Position numbers and translations under genes: made by a program
Notes under the pieces: generated by a model
Database searches by the model: none
What the model saw: the letters and a program-made list of their open reading frames with translations, nothing else
What the model was told of the DNA's origin: nothing
From: Pararhodobacter zhoushanensis
Lineage (GTDB): Bacteria > Pseudomonadota > Alphaproteobacteria > Rhodobacterales > Rhodobacteraceae
Assembly: GCF_003990445.1 (NCBI RefSeq)
Contig: NZ_REEZ01000007.1
Span: forward strand, 62,001-126,000
DNA length: 64,000 bases
Direction: 5' to 3'
Shown: positions 16,546-44,183 of the stretch, in pieces
Numbering within the stretch: the first letter of the stretch is position 1
Layout of the letters: every line of letters begins with the position of its first letter

Positions 16546-16561
16546 TTTCATACTTGTGAAA
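16546..16561. promoter_or_regulatory. Candidate IclR-type operator, site 1
   Basis: TTTCATACTTGTGAAA matches the consensus WTTCAYANNYGTGAAA also seen at 26701-26716 and 27522-27537. It lies 207 bases before the acyl-CoA dehydrogenase operon. The nearest IclR gene, at 26728-27507, carries one of the other sites in its own leader. Confidence 0.55.
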
Positions 16562-16767
16562 CTGTTTGCTCTCCATGCGATAGGTTTTGACAAGTTGGCC
16601 AAAAGCCCGGCTCCTAGAACGCGGAAGGGCGTGGATTTCGATCCGTCAGGGAGGCTCTCACAACACCACAAAACCGGCCGCACAGCCTGCGGCGACGGGG
16701 TGTTTCGGGCTGCTCCGCTGACAGATCGGGTGCGACGCGCGCCCCATGTGCAACAGCCGGAGGCGAC

Positions 16768-17871
16768 ATGCCCCTGATCCTACTCGATGACCCTGACTCG
16801 ACCCTGTCCATGCTGCGCGACAGTGTGGCCGGGCTGGCCGCCCGCGCCGATGGCCCGGCCACGATGCGCCGCCGCCGCGCCGATGGCGCCGATCTGGACG
16901 CCGCAGTCTGGAGCGCCATGGCCGAGGCCGGATTTCTGGGCCTGACCCTGCCCGAGGATCTGGGCGGCATGGGGCTGGGCACCGCCGAACTGGTCGTACT
17001 GGCCGAGGCGCTGGGCCGCGCGCTGCTGACCGAAGCCTACACGCCGCTGGCAGTGTTCCCCGGCGCGTTGCTGGCCGGGCTGACGCGCAGCGCCGCCCTG
17101 ATGCAGCTGGCCGAAGGGCTGATCGCGGGCGAACAGATCCTGCCGGTGCTGTGGCAGGACGCGCGCGGTCGCCGTGCCCCGCTGACGCTGAGTGCCGAGG
17201 GCACGCTGACCGGCGAGGCGCATCTGGTCCCGGGTGCCGCGTCGGCCACCGGCTTTCTGGTGCTGGCGCAGGATGCGGACGGGTTGGCGCTGGTCCATCT
17301 GGACGCCGGGGCCGACGGGCTGCGCCTCCACCAGCGCCCCGGCGTTGATGGCGCGACACTGGCGCGGGTGACGCTGCACGCGGTGCCGGTCAGCGCGGCG
17401 CAGGTTCTGGGCCGGGGTGCGACTGTCGAGGCCGCGCTCACCAACGCCATCGGACTCAGCCGTCTGGCACTGGCCGCCGAACTGGCAGGCCTTGCCTCGC
17501 GTGCGCTGGAGATCACCGTCGAGTACACCAGCAACCGCGTGCAGTTCGGCAAGACCATCGCCAGTTTTCAGGCTATCCAGCACCGTCTGGTCGATATGTG
17601 GTCCGAGGCCGAATTTTCCTGTGCCGCCGTCGCCCATGCCGCCACTACCACCGCCGAAGACCGCGCCCAGGCCGTTCTGGCCGCCAAGGCACGGGCCGGC
17701 GATGCCGCCACCTCGATCACCCGCAAAGCCATCCAGCTGCACGGCGCGATGGGCTTCACCGACCAATGCGACATCGGCCTCTATCTGAAACGCGCGATCA
17801 GCCTGAACGCGACGCTGGGCCAACCCGAGGCGCTGCGCCTTGCGTTTCTCGATGCCGACCTCGCTGCCTGA
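16768..17871 (+). CDS. Acyl-CoA dehydrogenase family protein (subunit-like, no obvious catalytic Glu)
   Basis: A 367-residue flavoprotein of the acyl-CoA dehydrogenase family: an N-terminal helical domain (GFLGLTLPEDLGGMGLG), a middle beta domain and a C-terminal helical domain with NRVQFGKTIASFQAIQHRL and QLHGAMGFTDQCDIGLYL. The middle domain is shortened, and the C-terminal catalytic glutamate found in homomeric enzymes is not apparent. A second dehydrogenase gene lies two genes on. Together they resemble heteromeric (alpha2beta2) enzymes such as FadE28/FadE29. GGAGGCGAC precedes the start. Confidence 0.88.
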   Translation: MPLILLDDPDSTLSMLRDSVAGLAARADGPATMRRRRADGADLDAAVWSAMAEAGFLGLTLPEDLGGMGLGTAELVVLAEALGRALLTEAYTPLAVFPGALLAGLTRSAALMQLAEGLIAGEQILPVLWQDARGRRAPLTLSAEGTLTGEAHLVPGAASATGFLVLAQDADGLALVHLDAGADGLRLHQRPGVDGATLARVTLHAVPVSAAQVLGRGATVEAALTNAIGLSRLALAAELAGLASRALEITVEYTSNRVQFGKTIASFQAIQHRLVDMWSEAEFSCAAVAHAATTTAEDRAQAVLAAKARAGDAATSITRKAIQLHGAMGFTDQCDIGLYLKRAISLNATLGQPEALRLAFLDADLAA

Positions 17872-17883
17872 AAGGACCACTCC

Positions 17884-18663
17884 ATGCGTAACGACCTGAT
17901 CAAGACCGAGATTGCCGACCACATCGCCGTGGTCACCATGGATGCCCCGCCGGTGAACGCGCAATCGCGCGAATTCATGGAAGAGCTGATCGAGGTGTTC
18001 GACGAACTCAATGAGACCCCCGGTGTGCGCTGTGTGGTGCTGACGGGCGCGGGCAAGTGCTTTTCCGCCGGGGCCGACATCAAGTCGCGCGCCAAGGTCG
18101 CCGACGGCGCGCCCGGTGACACCTACCGCCACCTGCGCCGCGCGCGTGAGGTGGGCTTTGTCATCACCGAGATGAACATCCCCGTCATTGCCGCCGTTAA
18201 CGGCCCGGCGCTGGGCGCAGGCATGGGGCTGGCGATCTGTTCGGACATGATTGTCGCCTCGACCAATGCGGTGTTTGGCCTGCCCGAGATCGACATCGGC
18301 CTGATGGGCGGCGTGCGCCACACGATGCGGGTGTTCCCGCTGTCGCTGACCCGCCGCATGGTGCTGACCGGCTGGCGCGTTCCGGCGGGCGAGCTGTATC
18401 GCCGCGGCCTGATCGAAGCCTGCGTCGAGCCTGAGGAGCTGATGGAAACCGCGATGGGTCTGGCGCGTCAGATCGCGTCGAAAAGCCCGGCGGGTATCCG
18501 TCTGGCCAAGCGCGCGCTCAACACGGTCGAGACGATGGGCCTGAAGGACGGCTACCGGTTCGAACAGAACCTGACGGTCGAGATGACGCGCCATGACGAC
18601 AGCAAGGAAGCCATGCGCGCCTTCATCGAAAAGCGCCCGGCCGTGTTCAAGGACGAACTGTGA
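17884..18663 (+). CDS. Enoyl-CoA hydratase/isomerase family protein
   Basis: A 259-residue crotonase-fold protein with the oxyanion motifs FSAGADIKSR (near residue 60) and NGPALGAGMGLAI (near residue 104), then LPEIDIGLMGG. It should hydrate or isomerise the enoyl-CoA made by the dehydrogenase pair that flanks it. It starts 12 bases after the first dehydrogenase and its stop overlaps the start of the second (TGATG). The substrate is unknown; the island context suggests a product of ring opening. Confidence 0.9.
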   Translation: MRNDLIKTEIADHIAVVTMDAPPVNAQSREFMEELIEVFDELNETPGVRCVVLTGAGKCFSAGADIKSRAKVADGAPGDTYRHLRRAREVGFVITEMNIPVIAAVNGPALGAGMGLAICSDMIVASTNAVFGLPEIDIGLMGGVRHTMRVFPLSLTRRMVLTGWRVPAGELYRRGLIEACVEPEELMETAMGLARQIASKSPAGIRLAKRALNTVETMGLKDGYRFEQNLTVEMTRHDDSKEAMRAFIEKRPAVFKDEL

Positions 18664-19832
18664 TGCTGCCCGCGCAACAAGACTGGAACGCGCTGAGCGA
18701 CGAGGATTTCCGCGCGATCTTCCGTGATTGGGTCGATGCCAATTGCGCGGCGCATCTGCGCTTCATGCGCAAACAGCGCCCGGTGTTCGACGAGGTCGCC
18801 GACTGGTATCTGGCGCTGTCTGCCAAGGGCTGGCTGTCGCCGATCTGGCCGCAGGAACACGGCGGCATGGGGCTGAACGCCGCCAAGCATATTGTGTATG
18901 TTGAGGAATGGGCGCGCCTTGGCTGTCCGCGCATCCCCGATCACGGCATCGGCCTGACCGGCCCCTTGCTGATCGAATTCGGCACCGAGGCGCAGAAAGA
19001 GTTCTTCCTGCCCAAGATCCTGACCGGTGAACACGTCTGGTGTCAGGGCTATTCCGAACCCAATGCCGGGTCCGATCTGGCGTCGTTGCGCACCTCGGCG
19101 GTGCGTGATGGCGATGAGTTCGTGATCAACGGCCAGAAGATCTGGACCACGCTGGCGCATTGCGCGAACTGGATCCTGCTGCTGGCGCGCACCGACAAGG
19201 ACACACCCAAACCGCAGGGCGGTATCACCGTGTTGCTGGTCGATCTGACCTCACCCGGCGTCGTCGTGCGACCGATCCCCAACTTGCGCGAAGAGGCCGA
19301 TTTCTGCGAGGTGTTCTTTGATGACGTGCGGGTGCCCGTCAAGAACGTGGTCGGCGAGATCAACGGCGGCTGGGCGCTGGCCAAGGCGGTTCTGGGGCAC
19401 GAGCGGATCTTTCTGGGCGCGCCTTCGCGGCCCGAATACGCGCTCAAGCGGCTGGAGCTGCTGGCGCGCGACCGCGGCGCGTTCGACGACGCGGCGTTCC
19501 GTTCGCGCTATGCCAAGCTGCGGCTGGATCTGTACGACCTTGGCTCGGCGTTCGAGCGCTTCGCCAAGGTGCTGCGCGAAGGCGGCACGCTGGGCGCGGA
19601 TGTGTCGGTGCTCAAGCTGTTCTGCACCGAGCTGTACCAACGCATCACCGAAGAAACCCTCGACGTCGCGGGCGAGGAGGCGCGGTTCTATGACGATCTG
19701 GACATCGCCGACGGCCATGTCGACGCGATGAACCTGTTCCTTGACGCTCGGGCCCCGGCGATTTTTGGCGGCTCGAACGAGATTCAGCGTAACATTCTGG
19801 CCAAGGCTGTCCTTGGCCTGCCGTCACGGTGA
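18663..19832 (+). CDS. Acyl-CoA dehydrogenase family protein (partner subunit)
   Basis: A 389-residue acyl-CoA dehydrogenase. It has the flavin-site motif WCQGYSEPNAGSDLASL and GQKIWTTLAH, and a C-terminal FGGSNEIQRNIL where homomeric enzymes usually read YEGT-x-E-I, so a glycine stands where glutamate is common. ATG 18663 overlaps the hydratase stop; a GTG at 18660 is also possible. Paired with the gene at 16768 it probably forms a heteromeric dehydrogenase for a bulky or branched acyl-CoA. The start of the LivG-type gene is eight bases beyond its stop. Confidence 0.9.
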   Translation: MLPAQQDWNALSDEDFRAIFRDWVDANCAAHLRFMRKQRPVFDEVADWYLALSAKGWLSPIWPQEHGGMGLNAAKHIVYVEEWARLGCPRIPDHGIGLTGPLLIEFGTEAQKEFFLPKILTGEHVWCQGYSEPNAGSDLASLRTSAVRDGDEFVINGQKIWTTLAHCANWILLLARTDKDTPKPQGGITVLLVDLTSPGVVVRPIPNLREEADFCEVFFDDVRVPVKNVVGEINGGWALAKAVLGHERIFLGAPSRPEYALKRLELLARDRGAFDDAAFRSRYAKLRLDLYDLGSAFERFAKVLREGGTLGADVSVLKLFCTELYQRITEETLDVAGEEARFYDDLDIADGHVDAMNLFLDARAPAIFGGSNEIQRNILAKAVLGLPSR

Positions 19833-19839
19833 GGGCCCC

Positions 19840-20604
19840 ATGAGCACTCCGACCGACTACGCCCTTGAAGCGCGCGGCCTGACCAAATCCTTTGGCGGGT
19901 TCCACGCGGTCAAGGATGTGAACCTTAAAGTCAGGCGTGGCGCGATCCACGCGCTGATCGGGCCGAACGGGGCGGGCAAGACGACCTGCTTCAACCTGTT
20001 GACCAAGACCCTGACGCCGACCAGCGGGCAGGTGCTGCTGGACGGGCAAGACATCACTGGCCTGCGCTCGGCGCAGGTGGCGCGGCTGGGGCTGGTGCGC
20101 TCGTTCCAGATTTCGGCGACGTTTCCGCATCTGACCTGTCTGGAAAACATCCGCGTTGCGTTGCAATCCAGTCAGGGCACGGCGTTCCGGTTCTGGCGCT
20201 CGCTGGGCTCGATCAAGGCGCTGAACGAGCCGGCGCGCGCGCTACTGGCGCAGGTAGGGCTGGCCGGGCAGGAGGACACGCTGGCAACCGAGCTGTCCTA
20301 CGGCAAGAAACGCGCGCTCGAAATTGCCACGACGCTGGCGCTGGACCCCAAGGTGATGCTGCTGGATGAGCCGACGGCGGGCATGGGTCACGAAGACATC
20401 GCGCCGATCACCGACCTGATCCGCGCGGTGTCGGCCGGGCGCACCATCCTGATCGTCGAGCATAACCTCTCGGTCGTTTCCAGCCTGTGCGAGCGCATCA
20501 CCGTGCTGCAACACGGCGAGGTGCTGACCGAGGGAACCTATGACGAGGTCTCCAACGACCCTGAGGTCATCACCGCCTATATGGGAGGCGTCGATGACGA
20601 GTGA
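19840..20604 (+). CDS. ABC transporter ATP-binding protein, LivG type
   Basis: A 254-residue ATPase: Walker A GPNGAGKTT near residues 42-50, the relaxed signature LSYGKKR that is typical of LivG, Walker B VMLLDEPTAGMG and the H-loop IVEHN. It is the first of four consecutive branched-chain amino-acid-type (HAAT) transporter genes. It overlaps the next ATPase gene by 11 bases. The receptor gene for this system is not here but probably the one at 28582-29796. In this catabolic island the substrate need not be an amino acid. Confidence 0.92.
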   Translation: MSTPTDYALEARGLTKSFGGFHAVKDVNLKVRRGAIHALIGPNGAGKTTCFNLLTKTLTPTSGQVLLDGQDITGLRSAQVARLGLVRSFQISATFPHLTCLENIRVALQSSQGTAFRFWRSLGSIKALNEPARALLAQVGLAGQEDTLATELSYGKKRALEIATTLALDPKVMLLDEPTAGMGHEDIAPITDLIRAVSAGRTILIVEHNLSVVSSLCERITVLQHGEVLTEGTYDEVSNDPEVITAYMGGVDDE

Positions 20605-21301
20605 CGCGCTGCTTTCGGTCGAAAACCTGCACGCCTGGTACGGCGAGTCCAAGGCGCTGCACGGGATGAATTTCACCGTCCGCCCCGGAGAGCTGGTCAC
20701 GCTGATCGGTCGCAACGGCGCGGGTAAATCCACCACGCTGCGCTCGATCATGGGCATCGTGGGCAAGCGCACGGGCTCGATCCGTTTCGACGGGCAAGAG
20801 CTGATCGGCAAGCGGACCTATCAGATCGCCCGCGCCGGGATCGCCTATTGCCCGGAAGAACGCGCGATCTTCTCGTCGCTGAACGTGTCGGAAAACCTGA
20901 CCCTGCCGCCGGTGCTGAAACCCGGCGGGATCGCGGACAGCGATTTGCTGGCGCAGTTTCCGAACCTGCAGCGGCGGCTGAAAAGCCCCGGCACCAAGCT
21001 GTCGGGCGGCGAGCAGCAGATGCTCGCCATCGCCCGCATCCTGCGCACCGGCGCGCGCTTCTTGTTGCTGGACGAACCCAGCGAGGGGCTGGCTCCGGTG
21101 GTGGTCAAGGAAATCGGCGAGCAGATCCTGCGGCTGAAGGCGCAGGGATTCACCATCCTGCTGGTCGAGCAAAACCTGCAATTCGCCCGCCGCGTCGCGG
21201 ATCGCCATGTCGTCGTTGAGAACGGCGTGGTGGTGGACACGCTGGATGCCGAAACCCTGCGGACCGACATGGACCGCGTCAAACATTACCTGGGGGTCTG
21301 A
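20594..21301 (+). CDS. ABC transporter ATP-binding protein, LivF type
   Basis: A 235-residue ATPase with Walker A GRNGAGKST, the signature LSGGEQQM, Walker B FLLLDEPSEGLAP and the H-loop LVEQN. The P-S-E-G-L-A-P motif is characteristic of LivF. GGGAGG precedes the start, which lies inside the end of the LivG-type gene. It should form a heterodimer with that ATPase to drive the LivH/LivM permeases encoded next. Confidence 0.92.
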   Translation: MTSDALLSVENLHAWYGESKALHGMNFTVRPGELVTLIGRNGAGKSTTLRSIMGIVGKRTGSIRFDGQELIGKRTYQIARAGIAYCPEERAIFSSLNVSENLTLPPVLKPGGIADSDLLAQFPNLQRRLKSPGTKLSGGEQQMLAIARILRTGARFLLLDEPSEGLAPVVVKEIGEQILRLKAQGFTILLVEQNLQFARRVADRHVVVENGVVVDTLDAETLRTDMDRVKHYLGV

Positions 21302-21305
21302 GCCG

Positions 21306-22190
21306 ATGTTCGACCATATCTCGATCCAGCTGCTGGCAGGCCAGTTGCTGATCGGCCTGATCAACGGGTCGTTCTATGCCATGCTCAGTCTGGGGCTGGC
21401 GATCATCTTTGGGCTGATCCACGTGGTGAACTTTGCCCATGGCGCGCAATACATGCTGGGGGCCTTTGTGGCGCTCTTGCTGCTCAACGTGCTGGGCATT
21501 CCCTATTGGGGAGCGCTGTTCATCGCGCCGGTGATTGTGGGGGCCTTCGGGCTGCTGATGGAGCGAACCATCCTGCGGCCCCTTCGCGGCCTCGATCCGC
21601 TCTACAGCCTGCTCGCCACCTTTGCCTCGGTGCTGATTATTGAGGGGCTGATGCGGCTCGAGTTCGGCTCAAGCGGGTTGCCCTACCGCTCTCCCATGCC
21701 CGGCGGCATCAATCTGGGGTTCATGTTCCTGCCGTGGTATCGCGGCTGGGTCGTGGTGTTCTCGCTGGCGGTCTGCCTTGGGACGTGGCTGTTGATCGAA
21801 AAGACCAAGCTGGGCGCTTATCTGCGTGCGGCGAATGAGCGGCCTGAGATCGTGGAGTCCTTCGGCATCAACGTGCCCCGGATGATGAGCCTGACCTATG
21901 CCTTCGGCGTCGGTCTGGCGGGTCTGGGCGGCGTGCTGGCCGCGCCGATCTATCAGGTGTCGCCGTCGATGGGCTCGAACCTGATGATCGTCATCTTTGC
22001 GGTGGTGGTGATCGGCGGCATGGGCTCGATTCTGGGCGCGATCCTGACCGGTTATCTGATCGGCATCGTCGAGGGGCTGACCAAGGTGTTCTACCCCGAA
22101 GGCTCGAACCTTGCGATCTTCGTCATCATGATCCTTGCCCTGATCCTGCGGCCCAACGGCCTGTTTTCCGCCCCGGAGAAATCCCGATGA
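21306..22190 (+). CDS. Branched-chain amino-acid-type ABC transporter permease, LivH type
   Basis: A 294-residue inner-membrane protein with about eight hydrophobic segments, the LivH start GLINGSFYAMLSLGLAIIFG, and the cytoplasmic coupling region RAANERPEIVESFGIN followed by VVVIGGMGSILGA. It starts four bases after the LivF-type gene and overlaps the LivM-type gene by four bases. With LivM it forms the transmembrane pore of a Liv/HAAT system. Confidence 0.92.
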   Translation: MFDHISIQLLAGQLLIGLINGSFYAMLSLGLAIIFGLIHVVNFAHGAQYMLGAFVALLLLNVLGIPYWGALFIAPVIVGAFGLLMERTILRPLRGLDPLYSLLATFASVLIIEGLMRLEFGSSGLPYRSPMPGGINLGFMFLPWYRGWVVVFSLAVCLGTWLLIEKTKLGAYLRAANERPEIVESFGINVPRMMSLTYAFGVGLAGLGGVLAAPIYQVSPSMGSNLMIVIFAVVVIGGMGSILGAILTGYLIGIVEGLTKVFYPEGSNLAIFVIMILALILRPNGLFSAPEKSR

Positions 22191-23110
22191 CCCGCTACGC
22201 CCTTTTCGCGCTGTTCGCTGTTCTGGCCGTGCTCGCGCCGTTCCAGATCTATCCGATCCTCTTGATGACCATCCTGTGCTTTGTGGTCTTCGCCTCGTCG
22301 TTCAACCTTCTCCTGGGCTACGCTGGCCTCTTGTGCTTTGGCCACGCGATGTTCTTTGGCACGGCGGCCTATCTGTCGGGCTGGATGCTCAAGCACACCG
22401 CGCTGTCGATCGAGCTGTGCTTCATCCTTGCCGCGCTGGCGATGGCGGCGCTGGGCTGGCTGGTCGGGCTGATCTCGGCCCGGCGGGGCGGCATCCAGTT
22501 TGCCATGATCACGCTGGCGATCTCGCAGTTCGTCTACTTCCTGCTGCTGCGCGCGCCCTTTACCGGCGGCGAGGACGGCTTGCAGCGCATCCCGCGGTCG
22601 GCGTTGTTCGGGGTGTTCGATGTCAGCAGCAATGTGGCGCTGTATTTCGTCGTGCTGGTGTTCTCGGTGCTGGCCATCGCGCTGTTCTACCGCATCGTCC
22701 ATTCGCCCTTTGGCGAGGTGCTGCGCGCGATCCGCGACAACGAGGACCGCGTGGAATCGCTGGGGTTCCAGCCCGAGCGGTTCAAGATCCTCGCCCTGAC
22801 CCTGTCGGCGGGGCTGGCCGGTCTGGCGGGCGCGATGAAAGCCGCCGTGTTCCAGATCGCCACGCTGCATGATTTGTCGTTCCATGTGTCCGGCACGATC
22901 ATCTTCATGACGCTGCTGGGCGGACTTGGCACGATGACCGGGCCGATGGTCGGGGCCGCGCTGATCGTGCTGCTGAACGACGAACTGGCGCAGTTCGGCG
23001 AATGGGCGCTGATCATTCAGGGGACGGTCTTCCTGGCGGTGATCCTGTTCTTCCGCAAGGGCGTGGTTGGCGAGATCAAGGCGCGGTTCTGGAAACCGGC
23101 GAAAAGCTGA
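22187..23110 (+). CDS. Branched-chain amino-acid-type ABC transporter permease, LivM type
   Basis: A 307-residue inner-membrane protein with about nine hydrophobic segments. LivM landmarks are NLLLGYAGLLCFGHAMFFG, the GGEDGLQRIPR loop and LGGLGTMTGPMVGAAL. It ends the plus-strand operon that starts at 16768; a perfect 14-pair hairpin at 23133-23166 follows. By place it completes uptake for the acyl-CoA dehydrogenase module. Confidence 0.92.
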   Translation: MTRYALFALFAVLAVLAPFQIYPILLMTILCFVVFASSFNLLLGYAGLLCFGHAMFFGTAAYLSGWMLKHTALSIELCFILAALAMAALGWLVGLISARRGGIQFAMITLAISQFVYFLLLRAPFTGGEDGLQRIPRSALFGVFDVSSNVALYFVVLVFSVLAIALFYRIVHSPFGEVLRAIRDNEDRVESLGFQPERFKILALTLSAGLAGLAGAMKAAVFQIATLHDLSFHVSGTIIFMTLLGGLGTMTGPMVGAALIVLLNDELAQFGEWALIIQGTVFLAVILFFRKGVVGEIKARFWKPAKS

Positions 23111-23132: not shown

Positions 23133-23166
23133 AAAGGGGCGCGCCGGATCATCGGCGCGCCCCTTT
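23133..23166. terminator. Bidirectional intrinsic terminator between convergent operons
   Basis: A perfect 14-pair stem (AAAGGGGCGCGCCG and its complement) with loop GATCAT separates the LivM-type gene from the convergent acyl-CoA ligase. A run of six A before the stem gives a good U-run for the minus strand; the plus strand has only TTT, so it is stronger for the minus-strand ligase. Confidence 0.8.
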
Positions 23167-23182: not shown

Positions 23183-24808
23183 TTAAGCCCCGACCAGATG
23201 ATCCTTCCACGCCGCGCGCAGCACCTTCTTGTCCAGCTTGCCGGTCGCCGTCAGCGGCAGCGTGTCGACAAAGACCAGCGCGTCCGGCAGCCACCAGCGG
23301 GCGACCTTGTCGGTGAGGAAATCGAGGATCTCTTGCGGTTCTGCCGTGCTGCCCGGTTTGCGGATCACCAGCATCAGCGGGCGCTCCTGCCAGCGTTCAT
23401 GCGTGACGCCGACGACCGCCGCCGCTTCGACCGCCGGGTGGTCGAGGGCGGCGTTTTCCAGCTCGATCGAGCTGATCCACTCGCCGCCCGACTTGATCAC
23501 ATCCTTGGAACGGTCGGTGAGCGTGACGAAGCCCTCAACGTCGATCTTGGCCACATCGCCCGTGGCGAACCAGCCCTCGGCATCGACCACCTGCCCGCCA
23601 ACCCCGCCGTAATAGCCCGAGGTCACCCACGGCCCGCGCACCATCAGTTCGCCCGAGACCGAACCATCCTGCGGCAACTCGCTGCCATCCTCGGCGACGA
23701 TCTTCAACTCGACCCCGAACATCGCACGGCCCTGCCGGGCAAGCACGTCGATCTGGTCGGATTTCGGCAGGTCGCGGTGATGCGGCAGCAGGGCGGCGAC
23801 GGTGGCGACGGGGCTTGTCTCGCTCATCCCCCAGGCCTGAAACGCGTGGACGCCCGCGTCATGGAAGCGTTGCAACAGCGCACGCGGGGCCGCCGAGCCG
23901 CCGATCAGCACGCGCTGGAAGGGCAGGCGTTGCACGTCGATCCCGGCCTCATCAAGGTATTTGAACAGACCCAGCCAGACCGTCGGCACACCCAGCGAGA
24001 AGGTGCAGTCCTCGGCCACAGCCAGTGAAAACAGGCTCTCGCCATCCAGTTTCGGCCCCGGCAGCACCAGCTTGGCGCCGCACATGGCGCTGGCATAGGG
24101 GATGCCCCAGGCGTTGACGTGGAACAGCGGCACGGCCAGCAGGGTGCTGTCATCGCGCGACAGGTGCAGCCCGTCGACCTGACAGCACAGGAAGGCGTGC
24201 AGCACGGTCGAGCGGTGGGAATATAGCACGCCCTTGGGGTTGCCCGTGGTGCCCGAGGTATAGCACAGCCCCGAGGCGCTGCGCTCGTCAAAGCGCGGCC
24301 AGACCAGCGTGCCATCCTCGGCACTGATCAGGGTCTCATAGCTGGTCAGCTCGGCTCGCCCCTCGGGCAGATGCGCCGCGTCGGTCAGCACGACCTGATG
24401 GCGAACAGCGGGGATCTTGCCCGCCAGCCCATCGACCAGCCCCAGGAACGGCAGATCGAACAGCAGCACCTCGGCCCCGCCGTGGTTTAGGATGTATTCG
24501 ATCTGCTCGGGGAACAGCCGGGGATTGACCGTGTGCAGCACCGCACCGATCCCGGCAGCGGCATAGTACAGCTCCAGATGCCGGTGCGTGTTCCACGCCA
24601 ACGTCGCCACCCGGTCGCCCGGCTTGACGCCCATCCGCAACAGCGCCTGCGCAGTTTGCCGTGCCCGCCGGGCCAGTTGACCCCAGTCCGAGCGCACGGT
24701 CTCACCTTCGCAGGTGACCGAGACGATCTCGCTGCGCGGGTGGTAGCGTTCAGCATGGGTGAGAAGGGATGAGATCAGCAGCGGCTGATCCTGCATGAGA
24801 CCGAGCAT
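23183..24808 (-). CDS. AMP-forming acyl-CoA synthetase (long/medium-chain fatty-acid ligase type)
   Basis: A 541-residue adenylate-forming enzyme: [16 protein letters not shown] near residues 180-195, [12 protein letters not shown], the GMSETSP motif, TGDVAKID, and the C-terminal lysine in ATGKLDKK. The PxFHVNAWG segment is common in the 3-methylmercaptopropionyl/medium-chain ligase group (DmdB-like), so DmdB is one possibility, but the context is a Baeyer-Villiger-type pathway. It is downstream of the monooxygenase gene on the same strand (82-base gap) and could activate the acid released from a lactone. Confidence 0.92.
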
Positions 24809-27507: not shown

Positions 27508-27521
27508 GGCATCCCCCCGGA

Positions 27522-28581: not shown

Positions 28582-29796
28582 ATGAAAACCACGAAAGCCT
28601 TCGGGCTCATGATGACCTGCACCGCGCTGACCGCTTCGCCGGCCTTTGCAGATTTTTCCGACGGTGTGATCCGTATTGGCGTGATGAACGACCAGTCGGG
28701 CCCCTATGCCGATAACTGCGGCGCGGGCTCGGTCGCGATGGCGCGGCTGGCGGTCGAGGATAACGGCGGCGCGATCAACGGCACGCCCATCGAGATCGTC
28801 ATCGCCGATGACCAGAACCAGCCCGACATCGGTGTGTCGACCGCACGGCGCTGGGTCGAAGAAGAGGGCGTCGATGCGATCATCGGCTGCTCGGCCTCGT
28901 CCATCGCGCTGGCGGTTCAGGACGTGATGCGCGAAAACAACCGCCCCTATCTGATCGCGGGAACGGCCACGACCGAAACCACCAATGGCCAGTGTTCGCC
29001 GATGACGACGAACTGGGCCTATGACACCTATACGCTGGCGCGCGGCTCGGTGAATGCCCAGCTCGAACAGGGCAACCTGACCTGGTACTTCATCACGGTT
29101 GACTACACCTTCGGCCAGCAATGGCAGGCTGATGCCACCCGCTTCGTTGAAGCGGCAGGCGGGACGGTGCTGGGCTCGACCCTGCATCCGCTGGGCGCGA
29201 ACGACTTTTCATCGCAGCTGCTGCAAGCACAGGCCAGCGGCGCGCAGGTGATCGGGATCGCCAACGCCGGGGCCGATCTGGCCAACGTGATCAAGCAAGC
29301 GGAAGAGTTCGGCATCGTCGCCGCCGGTCAGCATCTGGCGCCGCTGGGGATTCAGGTTAACAACGTCTACAGCATCGGGTTGGAAGCGACGCAGGGGTTG
29401 GTGTTCTCGGCTGCGGCCTACTGGAATTCGGACGATGAGACCCGCGCCCTGACCGAGCGCTACAACGCGGCCTATGACGGGCGGTATCCCAACGAGTCGC
29501 AGCTGGTCACCTATTCGGCGATGAACCATCTGCTGCAATCCATGGCAGCAGGCGGCAGCGACGATGGCGTCACGGTCATGGAACAGATGCGGGCGCTGCC
29601 GGTGAACGATCCGGTCATGCACGATGTGTCGATCCGTGCCGATGGCGTGGTGATGCACCCGATGCAACTGGTGCGCGTGCAGACGCCTGAGGCCTCGACC
29701 GGGCCGTGGGATCTGTACGAAGTGCTCGGCCAGATCCCGGCTGAACAATCCTGGCGGTCGCAGGCTGAAAGCGCCTGCCCGCTGTTCACCAACTAA
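28582..29796 (+). CDS. Liv-type ABC transporter substrate-binding protein
   Basis: A 404-residue periplasmic receptor of the LivJ/LivK (HAAT) class. A signal peptide of about 23 residues (cleaved after AFA) is followed by IRIGVMNDQSGPYAD and the typical AVEDNGGAINGTPIEIVIADDQ segment. It lacks its own permease genes; the LivGFHM-type set at 19840-23110 lacks a receptor, so they probably form one transporter. GGGAGGAAG precedes the start. A hairpin with T-run follows at 29810-29844, keeping its expression separate from the enzymes beyond. Confidence 0.92.
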   Translation: MKTTKAFGLMMTCTALTASPAFADFSDGVIRIGVMNDQSGPYADNCGAGSVAMARLAVEDNGGAINGTPIEIVIADDQNQPDIGVSTARRWVEEEGVDAIIGCSASSIALAVQDVMRENNRPYLIAGTATTETTNGQCSPMTTNWAYDTYTLARGSVNAQLEQGNLTWYFITVDYTFGQQWQADATRFVEAAGGTVLGSTLHPLGANDFSSQLLQAQASGAQVIGIANAGADLANVIKQAEEFGIVAAGQHLAPLGIQVNNVYSIGLEATQGLVFSAAAYWNSDDETRALTERYNAAYDGRYPNESQLVTYSAMNHLLQSMAAGGSDDGVTVMEQMRALPVNDPVMHDVSIRADGVVMHPMQLVRVQTPEASTGPWDLYEVLGQIPAEQSWRSQAESACPLFTN

Positions 29797-29855: not shown

Positions 29856-30761
29856 ATGACCGCCCCTATCGACACAAAGATCAAAGCCCAACGCGTCGGG
29901 CCAAGCCCGGACATGCTGGGCGAAAGCCCGTTGTGGGACGACCGGCGCCAGCGTTTGTACTGGGTGGACGGCGTGTCGCGCATGATCCGCTTTCTGGACC
30001 CGTCCAGCGGTGCGTCGGGGCAAATGCTCATGCCGTCGATGATTGGCTCGATCGGGCTGTGCGAGGATGGGCGGCTGGTCGCAGGCCTGTTCGACGGGAT
30101 CTATCTTGTCGATCTGGATGCAGACAGCCTTTCGCCGCTCTACCGCCCGGCGATCCCCAGCGACCGCGTGCGCTTCAACGATGGCAAGGTTGACCGTCAG
30201 GGTCGCTTCGTCTGCGGCGGCATGGGCGTGTTTGCCGAGCCGGTGGGCGAGCTGATCCGCGTCACCGGTGACGGGCAGGCCGAGGTGCTGGCCAACGGCA
30301 TCCGCATCTCGAACTCGCTGTGTTTCAGCCCGGACGGGCGCACGATGTATTTCTCGGACAGTCTGGACCGCTTCATCCGCGCCTATGACTATGACGACGG
30401 CGAACTTTCGCATCCGCGCGTGTTTGCCGATACGCAGCAATTCAATTCCGGCCCTGACGGCGCAACCGTCGATGCCGAAGGCCATGTCTGGGTGGCGCTG
30501 GTCAATGTCGGCAAGATCGCCCGCTTCGCTCCCTCGGGCAAGCTGGAGCGTCTGGTCGAGGCCCCCACGGATATGCCCAGCTGTCTGGCGTTTGGCGGTC
30601 CGAATCTGGACCAGCTTTATGTCACCTCGATCAAGGACAGCGGCTCGGGCCGCGCGATCTCGCGCCATCCGCAGGGCGGGTATCTGTTCGCGCTCGACGG
30701 GCTGGGCGTCACCGGGCTGGCCGAACCGCGCATGAAACTGGGAGGGGCCGCGCATGTCTGA
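29856..30761 (+). CDS. SMP-30/gluconolactonase family lactonase
   Basis: A 301-residue six-bladed beta-propeller hydrolase. Metal-site landmarks are GESPLWD (glutamate near residue 23), RFNDGKVD, NGIRISNSL (asparagine) and GPDGATVD (aspartate), so the divalent-metal site seems intact. No signal peptide, so it acts in the cytoplasm. GGGACACG precedes the start. In this island it may open the lactone made by the Baeyer-Villiger-type enzyme. Its end overlaps the next gene by eight bases. Sugar lactonase activity remains an alternative. Confidence 0.9.
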   Translation: MTAPIDTKIKAQRVGPSPDMLGESPLWDDRRQRLYWVDGVSRMIRFLDPSSGASGQMLMPSMIGSIGLCEDGRLVAGLFDGIYLVDLDADSLSPLYRPAIPSDRVRFNDGKVDRQGRFVCGGMGVFAEPVGELIRVTGDGQAEVLANGIRISNSLCFSPDGRTMYFSDSLDRFIRAYDYDDGELSHPRVFADTQQFNSGPDGATVDAEGHVWVALVNVGKIARFAPSGKLERLVEAPTDMPSCLAFGGPNLDQLYVTSIKDSGSGRAISRHPQGGYLFALDGLGVTGLAEPRMKLGGAAHV

Positions 30762-32847
30762 CGCCTTCGCCGCCCTCATGGCCCCGCGCAGTGTGGCGCT
30801 GGTCGGCGCCTCGGATGATGTATCGCGCATCGGGGGCCGCCCGCTGCGCTATCTGCGCGAGGCGGGCTTTGCCGGGCGCGTCCTGCCGGTCAACCCGCGC
30901 CGCGAAAGCGTGCAGGGTCTGCCCGCCTTTCCCTCGATCGCCGCTTTGCCCGAAACACCCGACACCGCCATTCTGGCGCTGCCCGCCGCCGCGACCTTGC
31001 AAACGGTTGAGGAATGCGCGGAGCGCGGCGTGCGTTCGGCGGTGATCTTTTCGGCCGGGTTTGCTGAAACGGGGCTCGAGGGCGAATACCTGCAATCGCG
31101 TATCGTCGCCACCGCGCGCGAGGCGGGCATGCGGCTGCTCGGCCCGAACTGTCTGGGCGTCTTCAACCCGGCGATCGGCTATTACGGCACGTTCAGCGTC
31201 ATTCTGGACACCGCACTGATCACCCCCGGCCCGGTTGGCATCGTCTCGCAAAGCGGGGCGTATGGCGCGCATATCGCCCATCTGGCGCGGCAGCGCGGGC
31301 TGGGCATCAGCCAGTGGATCACCACCGGGAACGAGGCCGATATCGACGTGGCCGAGGCGCTGGACTGGGTCGTCCGCCAGCCCGAGACGCGCGTGGTCAT
31401 GGCCTATGCCGAAGGCGTGCGCGACCGCGATCTGTTCCTGAACGCGCTGGAGACTGCGCGCGATCTGGGCAAGCCGATTGTGTTCATGAAAACCGGGCGC
31501 TCGTCGGTCGGGGCCGCCGCTGCCGCCTCGCATACCGCCGCGCTGGCCGGGTCGGACGCCGTGTTCGACGCCGTGCTGCGTCAGTACGGTGTGCACCGCG
31601 CGGCCACGACGGCCGAGCAGATCGACGTCGCCTATGCCTCCGCCTCGGGCCGCTTTCCGGCGGGCAACCGGATCGGGATTTTCACCATGTCCGGCGGCTT
31701 TGGCATCCAGCTCGCCGATGATGCCGAGGCGGCGGGCCTCGACGTCTCGCCCATGCCCGAGGATGCGCAGGCCGAGTTGCTCGAGATGCTGCCCTTCGCC
31801 GCGCCGCGCAATCCGGTCGACGCCACCGCGCAGGCGGTCAGCGATCTGAACCTGTTGCAGCGCTGCGTGCAACTGATGATGACGCGCGGCGAGTATGATC
31901 TTTTCACCGCCATCCTGGGCACCGGCCCGGCCAGCCGCACCTATGCCGACCCACTGCGCAAGGCGCTGATGGAAGCGCTGGGCGAGGCTGGCGACAGTAT
32001 CCGCGCGCTGACCATGTCCGCCCCCCCTGAGGTGGTGCGCCGCTACGAGGCCGACGGGTTTCTGGTGTTCGAGGATGGCTCGGCGCTGGCCCACGCGCTG
32101 GGCGCGCTGACCCGGTTCCGCGATGCCTTTGCCCGCCGTGACGAAGCCCCCGCGCCGATGGAACCGATGGAGTTGCCGCAAGGCCCGCTGAGTGAAGCGC
32201 GCGCCAAGGCGCTGCTGACGCGCGCGGGGATCCGCTTTGCGCGCGAACACCTTGCGGCGGATGCTGCCTGCGCCGCGCGCCTTGCGCCGACGCTGGGTTT
32301 CCCCGTGGTGGTCAAGATCTGCTCGCCCGACATCGCCCACAAGACCGAGATCGGCGGCGTCGCCGTCAATCTGCAAGATGAAGAGGCCGTGCGGCAGGCC
32401 GCCGCCGATATCCTCGCCCGCGCCGCCACGGCGATGCCCGACGCGCGGATCGAGGGCGTGCTGGTCGCGCCGATGGTGCAGGGCGGCGTGGAGACCATCG
32501 TCGGCGTCACCCGTGATCCGGTGCTGGGGCCGGTGGTGATGTTCGGTCTGGGCGGTATCTTTGTCGAGGTGCTCAAGGACGTCACCTTCCGCGCCGCGCC
32601 CTTCGGTGTCGCCGAGGCGCATCGCATGATCCGCGAAATCCGCGGCTTTGCGTTGCTTGAGGGTGTGCGCGGCGCGCCGCCCAGCGACATCGACGCGCTG
32701 GCGCAACTGCTCAGCGACCTGTCGCGCTTTGCTGCCGCCCATGCCGAGCAGGTGGTAAGCGTCGACCTGAACCCGGTGCGCGTGATGCCCAAAGGGCAGG
32801 GCGTCATCGCGCTGGATGCCTTGATCGAACTGGAGGGCCAGCCATGA
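30754..32847 (+). CDS. NDP-forming acyl-CoA synthetase (acetate-CoA ligase family)
   Basis: A 697-residue fused enzyme: an N-terminal CoA-binding domain ([10 protein letters not shown]), two succinyl-CoA-ligase-like domains with the putative phosphohistidine H260 in [11 protein letters not shown], and a C-terminal ATP-grasp domain (from about residue 480; [18 protein letters not shown]). It makes or uses an acyl-CoA with ADP or GDP rather than AMP. Similar proteins act as feruloyl- or other aromatic-acid CoA ligases. GGGAGG precedes the start, and it overlaps both neighbours, so translation is coupled. Confidence 0.92.
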
Positions 32848-33377
32848 CACCCGATCTAGCCGCGCAGATCACCGAATTGCGCGATCGCGAGGCGATCAAG
32901 GATTGTCTGCACCGCTATTGTCGCGGCGTGGACCGCGCCGACGAGGTCGCGCTTCGCTCGGCCTATTGGCCCGATGCCACCGACCGGCACGGCCCCTATC
33001 AGGGCAGCGCCGAGGGTTTCATCAACTGGGCGCGCAGCGTCTTCGCCACCGGGCCGCGCAATGTGCATGTGCTGACCAACATCCTGATCGACTTCGCCAG
33101 CCCCACCGAAGCCGCCGTCGAAAGCTATTTCACCGCCCACCAACGCGGCAAGGGTGCGGATGGCGTGGTCCGGCAAGTCATGCTGATCGGCCGTTATTGC
33201 GACCGGTTCGAGAAGCGCGGCGACGACTGGCGCGTCGCGGCGCGCACCGTGGTCTATGACTGGGCCGAGGATCAGACCGTGCCCGAGGGCAGCGAGGCCG
33301 AGCGTTTTGGCGTGCGACAGCCGGTCGGCAGCAGCTGGCCCGATGATCCCGTCTACCAGATCCTCAAACCCGTCTGA
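32844..33377 (+). CDS. SnoaL-like (NTF2 fold) protein (177 aa)
   Basis: A 177-residue protein with the SnoaL_4 pattern: an N-terminal helix ([17 protein letters not shown]), FWPDATD-like AYWPDATD, and a sheet ending with [13 protein letters not shown]. Members include dehydratases, isomerases, hydrolases and small subunits of aromatic degradation systems. The start overlaps the stop of the acyl-CoA synthetase (ATGA). It is followed by a flavin reductase. A catalytic role in the island is likely, but the reaction is unknown. Confidence 0.85.
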
Positions 33378-33405
33378 CCAGCCCCTGCCAATGGAAAGCG
33401 CTCCC

Positions 33406-33906
33406 ATGAAAGATCGGCCCAACGCCGTCGCGGTCGACGACTACAAGACGGCGATGCGCCATGTCGTCTCGCCCGTCGCCGTCGTCACCTATCGCCACGC
33501 TGATGCGTGGGAGGGGATGACCGTCACCGCGATCTGCTCGGCCACGACCGAGCCGCCGACGCTGGTGGTCTGCATTCGCAACGACCGTCCCGCTGCCGAA
33601 CGTATTCGCACGGCCGGGGCTTTCGTGGTGAACTTCCTGTCTGATGAGCAGGCCGATATTGCCCGGCGGTTTTCCTCGACCCCGCTCGATGATCGTGGCG
33701 CGTTTGATCTGGGAACCTGGGAAGAGGGGCAGGCGGGTGCGCCGATGCTTGATGGCGCGGTCAGCCGCTTTGACTGCGTGGTGGCGCAAGCCTTTACGCA
33801 AGGCAGCCACACGGTGTTTCTGGGGTCGGTCGTCGGCCTGCGCATCGCGCCCGGCGCGAACCTGCTTTACCGCGACGGATTCTTTCGTCGCCTGACTGCG
33901 GAGTGA
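33406..33906 (+). CDS. Flavin reductase family protein (FMN-binding split barrel)
   Basis: A 166-residue protein of the HpaC-like NAD(P)H:flavin reductase family: VVSPVAVVTY and GMTVTAICSATTEPPTLVVCI at the N-terminus, FVVNFLSDEQ in the middle and the H-x-V-F-L-G motif (SHTVFLGSV) near the C-terminus. It usually supplies reduced FMN or FAD to a two-component monooxygenase. No oxygenase subunit of that kind is adjacent, and the island monooxygenase appears self-contained, so its partner is unclear. ATG 33406 has GGAAAG upstream; ATG 33391 is an alternative. Confidence 0.88.
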   Translation: MKDRPNAVAVDDYKTAMRHVVSPVAVVTYRHADAWEGMTVTAICSATTEPPTLVVCIRNDRPAAERIRTAGAFVVNFLSDEQADIARRFSSTPLDDRGAFDLGTWEEGQAGAPMLDGAVSRFDCVVAQAFTQGSHTVFLGSVVGLRIAPGANLLYRDGFFRRLTAE

Positions 33907-33911
33907 TCCCC

Positions 33912-35483
33912 ATGACCCCCACCAGAACCTGTATCGTCACGGGTGCCGCCGGTGGCATCGGCCGCGCTTTGCTGGCCGAATTCGCCGCCCCCGATGTGCG
34001 GCTGATCGCCGTGGACCTGCCCGGCAGCGGCGTGGCCGAGGCGGTGGCGGAACACGGGGCCCAGCATGTCGGGCTTGAGTGTGATCTCTCGGACGAGGCG
34101 CAGATCGTCGCCCTGTTCGCGCAGATCGACACGCTGTGCGACGGCGTGGATATCCTGCTCAACAACGCCGCGATGGGGCCGACCATGGCGCCCACCGTGC
34201 AGACCGACATCGCCCATTTCCGCCTGACCCTGCGCACCAATCTGGCCGGGCCATTTGTCATGGCGCGTGAGGCGGCGGCGCGGATGCCCTCGGGCGGGGT
34301 GATCGTCAACACCGCCTCGCTCGCCGGGGTCTTGGGCAACCCGACGCGCAACGCCTATGCCGCATCGAAAGCGGCGCTGATCTCGCTGACCCGCTCGCTG
34401 GCCTGCGAATGGGCGGCGCGAGGGATCCGGGTGAATGCCATCGCGCCGGGCTATGTGCGCACACCGATGGTCGCGGCGCTGGAGGCGGCGGGCAAGGCCG
34501 ACCTCAGCGCAGTGCGCCGCCGTATCCCGATGGGCCGGCTGGCGCGGGCGGATGAGATGGCCTCGGCGATCGGGTTTCTGGCCTCGGACAAGGCGCGCTA
34601 TGTGACGGGGTCCGTGCTGGGCGTCGATGGCGGCTGGATGTCGTTTAACCAGCCCGGCGACGCGCACCCGCCTGCGGATCGTGTCCCCGCTGCCGAGCAG
34701 ACCCGCCCCGCCGCCGATCCTGCGCCGCGCGTCGTGGTGGTGACGGGCGCTGCAGACGGCATTGGCGCGGCAATTGCGGCGCGGTTTGTGGCCTCGGGCG
34801 ACAGGGTGGCGATTGTGGACCGCAACGGTGAGGGCGCGCGGGCGCAAGCCGCCACATTGGGCACGGCGGCGCAGGCCTTTGTCTGCGACGTGACGGATGA
34901 ACAAGCCGTCACCGACTGCTTCGCGCAGATCGTGCAGGCCATGGGGCCGGTGGATATTCTGGTCAACAACGCCGCCATCGCCGACGCCTTCCAGCCAGCG
35001 ACCGAGCAGACCACAGCCGATCTGGAGCGCGTGCTCGACGTCAACCTCACCGGCGCATTCCTGTGTGCCCGTGCGGCGATCCCCGGCATGCAGGCCGGGC
35101 GCGGCGTGATCATCAACATCGGCTCGATTGCCGGGCTGGTGCCGATGGCCCCACGGCATGCGTATGGCGCGTCCAAGGCGGGGGTCGACATCCTGACCCG
35201 CTGTTTCGCCGCCGAACTCGGCCCGCAAGGCATCCGCACCGCCACCGTCGCGCCGGGCTATATCCGCACCCCGGGCGTGGCGGCGCTGGAAGAGGCCGGG
35301 CGTATCGACAGCGAATCGATCCGCGCGCGGATTCCGATGGGCGATCTGGGGCAGCCGCAGGATATAGCCGAGGCGGTGTGGTTCCTCGCCTCGCCCGGTG
35401 CCAGCTATATCAACGGCACGTTGCTCAGCGTCGATGGCGGCTGGAACGCCTTTGGCAGCGCCGGCGACGCTAGCGACGCCTGA
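33912..35483 (+). CDS. Tandem short-chain dehydrogenase (two fused SDR domains)
   Basis: A 523-residue protein made of two complete SDR domains. Domain one (residues 1-245) has TGAAGGIGR, NNAAMG and YAASK. A proline-alanine linker of about 25 residues follows, then domain two (from about 272) with TGAADGIGA, NNAAIAD and YGASK. Both keep the tyrosine-lysine pair, so both may be active. The fusion could channel two successive oxidations or form an internal dimer. It ends the operon that starts at 29856. Confidence 0.9.
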   Translation: MTPTRTCIVTGAAGGIGRALLAEFAAPDVRLIAVDLPGSGVAEAVAEHGAQHVGLECDLSDEAQIVALFAQIDTLCDGVDILLNNAAMGPTMAPTVQTDIAHFRLTLRTNLAGPFVMAREAAARMPSGGVIVNTASLAGVLGNPTRNAYAASKAALISLTRSLACEWAARGIRVNAIAPGYVRTPMVAALEAAGKADLSAVRRRIPMGRLARADEMASAIGFLASDKARYVTGSVLGVDGGWMSFNQPGDAHPPADRVPAAEQTRPAADPAPRVVVVTGAADGIGAAIAARFVASGDRVAIVDRNGEGARAQAATLGTAAQAFVCDVTDEQAVTDCFAQIVQAMGPVDILVNNAAIADAFQPATEQTTADLERVLDVNLTGAFLCARAAIPGMQAGRGVIINIGSIAGLVPMAPRHAYGASKAGVDILTRCFAAELGPQGIRTATVAPGYIRTPGVAALEEAGRIDSESIRARIPMGDLGQPQDIAEAVWFLASPGASYINGTLLSVDGGWNAFGSAGDASDA

Positions 35484-44182: not shown

Positions 44183-44183
44183 A

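What the first reader, a model, noticed from the sequence alone, without database searches (positions are those of the whole stretch)
16546..35483. A probable ketone/lactone degradation island with a split Liv-type transporter
Seen: in one 19-kb block lie a Baeyer-Villiger-type monooxygenase, SDRs, an SMP-30 lactonase, two acyl-CoA ligases of different chemistry, a paired acyl-CoA dehydrogenase, a hydratase and a Liv-type transporter whose receptor gene is 5.5 kb from its permease genes. Known: monooxygenase, lactonase and CoA ligase act in sequence in cyclohexanone and monoterpene pathways. Inferred: the island degrades a cyclic or branched alcohol or ketone. I do not recognise this exact gene set.
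Basis: partly seen in the sequence, partly recalled or inferred. Interest (0 to 1): 0.7.

Follow-up and report, generated by a model that had tools for sequence, protein, structure and literature searches.

The report
Conserved ketone-to-lactone degradation regulon
The block is a real set of 17 genes, found whole or in part in many distantly related marine, soil and plant-associated bacteria and apparently under one regulator here, that most likely takes up and breaks down a ring-shaped ketone or alcohol whose identity is still unknown.

Summary
In this Pararhodobacter-like genome, 17 genes (16768-35483) form three transcription units around an IclR regulator. A palindrome, TTCACAnnTGTGAA, lies upstream of each unit (16547, 26702, 27523). 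As TTCAYNNNTGTGAA it occurs at 6 places in 4.83 Mb; 3 are here. It recurs in relatives' loci (50 sites against 1.0 expected in 25 alphaproteobacterial loci), although some carriers lack it. Orthologues of the monooxygenase, large acyl-CoA dehydrogenase and transport receptor occur in the same 4 of 295 family genomes. In 6 of 6 alphaproteobacterial genomes tested where the monooxygenase stands apart, the rest of the set is a block elsewhere; of 5 Burkholderiales so tested, one shows this. The 'split' transporter is operon reshuffling.

Likely mechanism: Liv-type uptake, alcohol to ketone (SDR), Baeyer-Villiger oxygenation, lactone hydrolysis (SMP-30), CoA activation, heteromeric dehydrogenation, then a one-glutamate crotonase, without a thiolase. 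The substrate is unknown; cyclohexanone and monoterpene pathways are analogies. The monooxygenase belongs to a 79-sequence clade in which 69 lack the fingerprint histidine (Arg here), with catalytic Asp and Arg invariant. The genome carries a second, paralogous module. Nine paper searches found no description of the set.

The parts
16479..16511 (+). Terminator-like hairpin that separates the upstream sugar ABC transporter genes from the island
   Evidence: consensus scan; 19 found in the region against 12.3 in shuffles, so weak by itself
16547..16560 (.). Operator-like palindrome TTCATACTTGTGAA, upstream of the unit small ACAD to LivM
16768..17871 (+). Acyl-CoA dehydrogenase, small subunit (middle domain not recognised by Pfam)
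17884..18663 (+). Crotonase-fold protein; Gly at the first catalytic Glu position, second Glu (E135) kept
18660..19832 (+). Acyl-CoA dehydrogenase, large subunit; nearest solved chain 4x28_A, then Tcur3483 (6wy8/6wy9)
19840..20604 (+). Liv-type ABC transporter ATPase (LivG-like)
   Evidence: start read
20594..21301 (+). Liv-type ABC transporter ATPase (LivF-like)
   Evidence: start read
21306..22190 (+). Liv-type permease (LivH-like)
   Evidence: start read
22187..23110 (+). Liv-type permease (LivM-like)
23136..23163 (.). GC-rich hairpin with A run and T run between the convergent LivM and AMP-ligase genes; read as a two-way terminator
   Evidence: read by eye from sequence printed; not among the hits
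23183..24808 (-). AMP-forming acyl-CoA ligase; nearest solved sequence 6ihk; NCBIfam 3-(methylthio)propionyl-CoA ligase model below its cut-off
24890..26530 (-). Type I-like Baeyer-Villiger monooxygenase of a clade that mostly lacks the fingerprint His (FKGLTLRAARWP)
   Evidence: start inferred
26702..26715 (.). Operator-like palindrome TTCACGGATGTGAA (- strand reading), 171 bp upstream of the BVMO coding start
26728..27570 (-). IclR-family regulator (true start probably GTG near 27507)
   Evidence: start inferred
27523..27536 (.). Perfect palindrome TTCACAAGTGTGAA between the divergent IclR and SDR units
27763..28521 (+). SDR dehydrogenase (S143, Y156, K160 conserved)
28582..29796 (+). Periplasmic binding protein of the Liv-type transporter
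29856..30761 (+). SMP-30/gluconolactonase-type lactonase; putative metal ligands E23, N108, N153, D201 conserved
30754..32847 (+). ADP-forming (ATP-grasp) acyl-CoA ligase, H260 conserved; its start overlaps the SMP-30 stop
32844..33377 (+). SnoaL_4 protein with D30/H75 conserved; weak match to LinA
33391..33906 (+). Flavin reductase (start approximate)
33903..35483 (+). Double SDR; both halves carry an SDR tetrad-like set by inspection

Best explanation
The island is an IclR-controlled catabolic regulon. A polar alicyclic alcohol or ketone, possibly with a carboxylate side chain, enters through the Liv-type transporter (inferred from gene types). An SDR oxidises the alcohol to a ketone; in some relatives an Old-Yellow-Enzyme may first reduce an enone. 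The BVMO inserts oxygen to give a lactone, and the SMP-30 enzyme opens it to a hydroxy acid. The AMP-forming ligase makes the CoA ester, and a heteromeric acyl-CoA dehydrogenase of the bulky-substrate kind desaturates it. A one-glutamate crotonase and the double SDR process the product; because the set has no thiolase, the carbon skeleton is probably cut by a retro-aldol or similar step. The SnoaL protein probably removes water or shifts a double bond, and the ADP-forming ligase recovers a second acid as its CoA ester. IclR sits on TTCACAnnTGTGAA at each promoter. Shown by sequence: gene set, conservation, shared palindrome, intact catalytic residues. Inferred: each reaction, their order, direct IclR binding and the substrate class.
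For: Co-location: 64 of 70 orthologous BVMO loci have at least one of 12 specific partners, 46 of 70 have three or more; paralogous BVMO loci 0 of 18. Joint occurrence: BVMO, large ACAD and receptor orthologues (65% identity or more) are in the same 4 of 295 family genomes. BVMO apart: of seven Rhodobacterales or Rhizobiales loci of at least 12 kb whose BVMO had at most one specific partner, six genomes were tested (L070, same species as L017, was not). All six carry the rest as one block: on another contig in three (L014, L015, L018) and about 10-30 kb away, on what is by its length the same contig, in three (L017, L011, L013). For L014 and L015 the palindrome search itself pointed to the block. 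Palindrome: 3 places in the window at up to 1 mismatch (6 strand matches) against 0.34 matches expected, 0 of 100 shuffles as many; 6 places in the whole genome, 3 here, reversed control 0; 50 sites against 1.03 expected in 25 alphaproteobacterial loci, against 2 and 0.98 in 19 paralogue loci. Catalytic residues: for SMP-30, SnoaL, SDR and ligase; for the BVMO. Large ACAD nearest to 4x28_A and Tcur3483, small subunit to Tcur3481.
Against: No enzyme was assayed, and no relative with a tested substrate was found. BVMO and SMP-30 need not act in sequence: in 26 of 70 clade loci no SMP-30 lies within 12 kb (flanks were mostly 10 kb). In 4 of 5 Burkholderiales genomes tested with an isolated BVMO, the best ACAD (44-55%) and receptor (45-49%) matches lie on different contigs, so linkage of the whole set is not general there. 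The BVMO lacks a defining fingerprint residue. The palindrome is absent from the Sulfitobacter-type loci L009, L010, L102, L104 and L105 and from the main blocks L182 and L183, and is not enriched in Burkholderiales or sphingomonad loci, so other regulators or operators serve there. Volatile terpene ketones would hardly need an ABC transporter (recalled reasoning).
Confidence: 0.65

Rival explanations
1. The ketone is open-chain or aryl-alkyl, as for phenylacetone monooxygenase. The BVMO makes a linear ester, and SMP-30 acts as an esterase or on another intermediate. The ligases, ACAD pair and crotonase shorten a phenylpropanoid-like side chain.
For: Nearest solved enzyme is phenylacetone monooxygenase (560 bits), ahead of steroid (504-506) and cyclohexanone (447) monooxygenases. 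The crotonase keeps one Glu and the set has no thiolase, as in hydratase-lyases (recalled). In Comamonas testosteroni KF-1 a BVMO makes such an ester, hydrolysed by an esterase (passage of PMC3746432).
Against: No esterase of the alpha/beta-hydrolase kind in the set, while an SMP-30 with all four metal-ligand positions is kept. The ACAD pair is of the kind known for bulky ring substrates (meaning recalled).
Confidence: 0.2
2. The monooxygenase no longer does Baeyer-Villiger chemistry. With Arg in place of the fingerprint His it oxygenates a heteroatom or serves another step, and SMP-30 opens a lactone made otherwise.
For: 69 of 79 clade members lack the His (Arg 55, Leu 10, Tyr 4), against 18 His among 23 sequences outside the clade.
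Against: PAMO-equivalent D66, R337 and R217 and the GxW tryptophan are invariant in 102 of 102 sequences. Ten members inside the clade carry His. Earlier authors also accepted BVMOs with minor fingerprint differences when catalytic residues were kept (passage of PMC5408260).
Confidence: 0.07
3. The set is biosynthetic, or three neighbouring but unrelated operons.
For: Three separate transcription units; double SDR and flavin reductase also occur in natural-product clusters (recalled).
Against: An uptake-type transporter with receptor and two CoA ligases, no synthase or export gene among the 17. Shared palindrome and joint occurrence.
Confidence: 0.04

Closest known systems
p-Menthane ketone pathway (carveol to carvone, dihydrocarvone, epsilon-lactone, hydroxy acid, CoA ester; Rhodococcus erythropolis DCL14, recalled)
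   Same: Order of chemistry: SDR, in some relatives an ene reductase (one gene cluster in 13 loci, its representative scanned), BVMO, lactone hydrolase, acyl-CoA ligase, acyl-CoA dehydrogenase
   Different: Lactone hydrolase there is an alpha/beta-hydrolase (recalled), here SMP-30; here a Liv transporter, paired ACAD, second (ADP-forming) ligase, SnoaL and IclR control
Camphor pathway of Pseudomonas putida (diketocamphane monooxygenases plus flavin reductase, CoA ligase, OTEMO; recalled, OTEMO chain)
   Same: BVMO, CoA ligase and flavin reductase in one pathway
   Different: No P450 or luciferase-like monooxygenase among the 17 genes; OTEMO matches more weakly (429 bits) than PAMO (561)
Cyclohexanol/cyclopentanol (chn/cpn) pathways (recalled)
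   Same: Alcohol dehydrogenase, BVMO, lactonase logic
   Different: Those end in a dicarboxylic acid without CoA ligases in the cluster (recalled); here two ligases and an ACAD pair
9,10-Anthraquinone degradation in Sphingobium sp. AntQ-1 (PMC9836352, passages read)
   Same: BVMO beside a lactone hydrolase; ring cleavage through a lactone
   Different: Hydrolase annotated as monoterpene epsilon-lactone hydrolase; the type I BVMO there has the canonical fingerprints; no Liv transporter or ACAD in the passages read
4-Sulfoacetophenone BVMO and esterase of Comamonas testosteroni KF-1 (PMC3746432, passage read)
   Same: BVMO followed by hydrolysis in a comamonad
   Different: Linear ester and carboxylester hydrolase; no lactone and no gluconolactonase found in that text

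Membership tests
Type I Baeyer-Villiger monooxygenase | First fingerprint [A/G]GxWxxxx[F/Y]P[G/M]xxxD | tested here: met
   GGVWYWNRYPGARCD; motif definition from passages in PMC9836352 and PMC5408260
Type I Baeyer-Villiger monooxygenase | Second fingerprint FxGxxxHxxxW[P/D] | tested here: not met
   FKGLTLRAARWP: Arg in place of His. It is therefore described as an atypical branch that works like one, not as a canonical member
Type I Baeyer-Villiger monooxygenase | Catalytic Asp66 and Arg337 and cofactor Arg217 (PAMO numbering, recalled) | tested here: met
   102 of 102 sequences
Type I Baeyer-Villiger monooxygenase | NADPH-dependent oxygen insertion next to a ketone | not testable with these tools
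   needs enzyme assay
SMP-30/gluconolactonase family | SGL domain and metal-binding Glu, Asn, Asn, Asp | tested here: met
   PF08450 5.3e-79; E23, N108, N153, D201 conserved in at least 93% of 37 sequences; ligand identities recalled
Liv (HAAT) ABC transporter | Binding protein, two BPD_transp_2 permeases, two ATPases | tested here: met
Liv transporter for branched-chain amino acids or urea | Curated cut-offs of LivG, LivF, LivH, LivM or Urt models | tested here: not met
   the listed Liv and Urt scores are below cut-off
IclR regulator | HTH_IclR and IclR_C domains | tested here: met
p-Menthane ketone pathway | Epsilon-lactone hydrolase of the alpha/beta-hydrolase kind in the cluster | tested here: not met
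   no such gene among the 17
Classical enoyl-CoA hydratase | Two catalytic glutamates | tested here: not met
   first position Gly in 33 of 35, second Glu in 35 of 35; rule recalled
Heteromeric (alpha2beta2) acyl-CoA dehydrogenase | Two unequal neighbouring subunits related to FadE26/FadE27 or Tcur3481/3483 | tested here: inconclusive
   subunits neighbouring (crotonase gene between them) and related; assembly not tested; FadE26/27 label for 4x28 recalled

The most novel reading that the evidence does not exclude
The module is an undescribed, widely shared pathway for a plant or algal cyclic keto acid of the signalling type (jasmonate/oxo-phytodienoate or abscisate/ionone-like). Its BVMO subfamily works with Arg in place of the fingerprint His, so strict fingerprint-based mining would miss it. 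Some bacteria, including this one, keep two paralogous modules for two related compounds.
Probability: 0.12. Interest if true: 0.75.

Novelty: new variant of a known kind. Interest (0 to 1): 0.47.

Why it matters
A 17-gene catabolic set with one shared palindrome, and with whole or partial relatives in Rhodobacterales, Rhizobiales, Burkholderiales, sphingomonads and Caulobacterales, points to a common natural substrate that was not found named in the papers searched. The palindrome gives a direct handle: a compound that releases IclR from it would probably be the substrate or an early intermediate. The BVMO clade also offers a natural test of how essential the fingerprint His is, since genome mining uses it.

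Tried and rejected
Considered and rejected: (1) chance neighbourhood, by the paralogue control and the joint occurrence. (2) A meaningful physical split of the transporter: gene order varies among relatives. (3) An ene reductase step in this genome: the best match to the relatives' Old-Yellow-Enzyme is 44% identical and lies on another contig, so that step is not claimed here. (4) Steroid degradation was considered because of the FadE26/27-like subunit and was not pursued with marker genes. (5) Jasmonate, abscisate, geosmin and lignin-ketone substrates were considered from chemistry alone; no tool result chooses among them. The three palindromes elsewhere in the genome (C1, C4, C53) have no homologue of an island protein within the 6-kb stretches fetched. 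Paper searches that found no description of the set: (search listings only). Passages were read of PMC9836352, PMC10682829, PMC6307125, PMC5408260 and PMC3746432; no paper was read whole. PMC5408260 notes minor fingerprint differences in some metagenome BVMOs, so deviation as such is not new.

Limits: the pattern was learned from the window, and homologous loci are not independent. Without the six Pararhodobacter-type loci L001-L006 (18 sites), 32 sites remain in 17 of 19 loci (arithmetic). The 50 sites were counted anywhere in the loci, not only before module genes, and two pairs (L026, L032) overlap. Of its 99 rows, L106 (53% BVMO) fell between the two classes and 10 loci under 12 kb were left out; L068, with a partial BVMO, never entered. 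Fingerprint counts include the window and near-copies. Cluster names for relatives' genes (c16, c29, c31, c34) rest on one scanned representative each.
Full report
What is there. The window lies in a Pararhodobacter-like genome: the nearest loci are Pararhodobacter species and one related MAG at 87-90% BVMO identity, and the genome has 4.83 Mb. Between a terminator-like hairpin (16479-16511) and 35483 lie 17 genes in three units. Unit 1 (+): small ACAD, crotonase, large ACAD, two Liv ATPases, two Liv permeases. Unit 2 (-): IclR regulator, BVMO, AMP-forming ligase. Unit 3 (+): SDR, Liv receptor, SMP-30, ADP-forming ligase, SnoaL_4 protein, flavin reductase, double SDR. Several neighbours overlap start-to-stop, so units 1 and 3 look like operons. 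The BVMO matches solved BVMOs over residues 16-553 of 565, best phenylacetone monooxygenase.

Is the grouping more than chance? The BVMO protein brought in 75 loci from genome contigs and 23 matches in 295 family genomes: 4 at 67% or more, one at 54% (a second copy in this genome) and 18 at 45% or less; also plasmid records. Among the 70 loci of at least 12 kb with a BVMO at 54% identity or more, 64 have at least one and 46 have at least three of 12 specific partner genes (at least 40% identity and 50% coverage, within 12 kb). Among 18 such loci with paralogous BVMOs (under 50%) none has any of the 12; one has a LivG-like ATPase. Most frequent partners in those 70: SDR 45, SMP-30 44, crotonase 39, AMP-ligase 38, LivF and SnoaL 32 each, LivH and LivM 31 each. 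Carriers span Rhodobacterales, Rhizobiales, Burkholderiales, sphingomonads and Caulobacterales, and plasmids of Pseudosulfitobacter, Comamonas and Variovorax. All 16 partners lie within the fetched locus in L001-L004, and the whole set is also present in Flavimaribacter when L020 and L148 are taken together.

Occurrence in genomes. In 295 genomes of the family, BVMO matches of 67% or more occur in G000, G222, G092 and G192; the next best genome has 45% (E at most 1e-100). The large ACAD at 81% or more and the receptor at 65% or more occur in the same four (E at most 1e-120). Nine more genomes have an ACAD at 53-54%, a clear step down, without a receptor at that threshold.

BVMO standing apart. 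In seven Rhodobacterales or Rhizobiales loci of at least 12 kb the BVMO had none (L013, L014, L015, L018, L070) or one (L011, L017) of the 12 partners. Six genomes were tested (not L070, same species as L017). All six have the rest as one block: another contig for L014, L015 and L018; for L017 about 10 kb, for L011 about 18 kb and for L013 about 28 kb away on what is, by its length, the same contig. Each block has AMP-ligase, both ACADs, crotonase, LivGFHM, receptor, SDR and SMP-30. IclR was seen in 5 of 6, SnoaL, double SDR and ADP-ligase in 4 of 6 each, flavin reductase in 3 of 6; the stretches fetched for L014 and L015 end inside the block. For L014 and L015 the block was found by the palindrome alone. 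Five Burkholderiales genomes (L022, L037, L046, L048, L061) were tested in the same two searches: L037's genome has the set as a block (L186), in the other four the best ACAD and receptor matches lie on different contigs.

Shared palindrome. TTCATACTTGTGAA (16547), TTCACGGATGTGAA (26702, - strand reading) and TTCACAAGTGTGAA (27523) precede the units. The pattern TTCAYRNNTGTGAA with up to one mismatch gives only these three places in the window (6 strand matches; expected 0.34; 0 of 100 shuffles as many). TTCAYNNNTGTGAA occurs at 6 places in the genome, three of them here; the reversed control gives 0. In 25 loci of Rhodobacterales, Rhizobiales and an unclassified alphaproteobacterium, TTCA[CT]N4[AG]TGAA occurs 50 times in 23 loci against 1.03 expected. 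Other groups: 30 Burkholderiales loci 3 against 1.18; 16 sphingomonad and Caulobacterales loci 2 against 0.45; 19 paralogue loci 2 against 0.98; the second module of this genome 0. A site lies within 450 bp upstream of the BVMO in 18 loci besides the window (20 rows less the duplicates L076 and L077). In 11 relatives' genomes TTCACNNNNGTGAA gives 1-14 places each, reversed control 0-2; many of these have GC-rich cores and lie away from the module. Against: no site in L009, L010, L102, L104 or L105, nor in the main blocks L182 and L183. The link to IclR is inference from position beside its gene and the palindromic form.

How it probably works. The steps are listed under Best explanation. Sequence supports the competence of each enzyme: SMP-30 metal positions E23, N108, N153, D201; SnoaL D30 and H75; SDR S143, Y156, K160; ligase H260 (residue roles recalled). 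The large ACAD is nearest to 4x28_A and Tcur3483, the small one to Tcur3481, known as heteromeric enzymes for steroid side chains (recalled), which suggests a bulky acyl group. The crotonase has Gly where classical hydratases have their first Glu (33 of 35) and keeps the second Glu (35 of 35). With no thiolase among the 17, a lyase-type cleavage is the likelier way to shorten the chain. In 13 relatives' loci one gene cluster, whose representative is an Old-Yellow-Enzyme, is a neighbour, which fits an enone substrate there; this genome has only a 44% relative elsewhere. Some sphingomonad-group loci carry a TonB receptor (6 loci) or an MFS transporter (6 loci) and no complete Liv set in view, which fits a polar or large compound.

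An unexpected feature. The published second fingerprint of type I BVMOs is FxGxxxHxxxW[P/D] (passages in PMC9836352, PMC10682829 and PMC5408260). Of 102 aligned sequences the His position holds R 56, H 28, L 10, Y 4, F 2, Q 1, V 1, while the PAMO-equivalent D66, R217 and R337 and the GxW tryptophan are invariant. In the tree, 79 sequences form one group on a long stem (SH-aLRT 100): R 55, L 10, H 10, Y 4; of the 23 outside, 18 have His. The ten His sequences lie in one branch of mostly Burkholderiales (quick method, rooted at midpoint, that branch's support 87). Rhizobium sp. C4 (L026) and L032 have alphaproteobacterial partners but a BVMO in that branch, with a palindrome 162 bp upstream, which looks like replacement of one gene within a working set. 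PMC5408260 reports minor fingerprint differences in some metagenome sequences, so such deviation has been seen; a clade that mostly lacks the His was not described in the passages read.

A second module. At G000:C53 (about 89.7-105.7 kb) the same genome has a paralogous set: BVMO (54%, Leu at the fingerprint), Liv transporter with receptor, SMP-30, both ACADs, crotonase (76-82% to sphingomonads), AMP-ligase, IclR and SDR. It has no site of the palindrome pattern. The same functions gathered twice argue that they belong together.

Known or new. No paper describing the set was found in nine searches, of an open-licence library only. The chemistry is of a known kind; the gene set, the regulon and the atypical BVMO clade were not found described. 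The substrate remains the main unknown.

Noticed in passing
G000:C53:89699-105700 (L106, L122): Second, paralogous BVMO/SMP-30/ACAD/Liv/IclR module in the same genome, closest to sphingomonad and Caulobacter genes, without the palindrome.
   Followed up: partly
window 41091-45539: TctC and TctA transporter genes beside an AtuA-family gene (AtuA is named for acyclic terpene use), with a two-component system and a solute-binding protein at 38007-41058.
   Followed up: no
window 35743-37716: Formyl-transferase (PurU-like) and FolD-type genes directly after the island.
   Followed up: no
L026, L032: Rhizobiales module whose BVMO groups with Burkholderiales and carries the fingerprint His, yet has the palindrome upstream: apparent replacement of one gene.
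   Followed up: partly
L009, L010, L011, L013, L019, L102: A luciferase-like monooxygenase gene and a second flavin reductase next to the BVMO; in L102 also a Tct transporter and a second ADP-ligase/ACAD set.
   Followed up: no
L047, L062: Contigs labelled Singulisphaera and Pantoea carry Comamonadaceae-like BVMO sequences (end branches about 0.03); probably misassigned contigs.
   Followed up: no
window 13479-16459: Sugar-type ABC transporter (binding protein, permease, ATPase) just upstream of the island, separated by a terminator-like hairpin.
   Followed up: no
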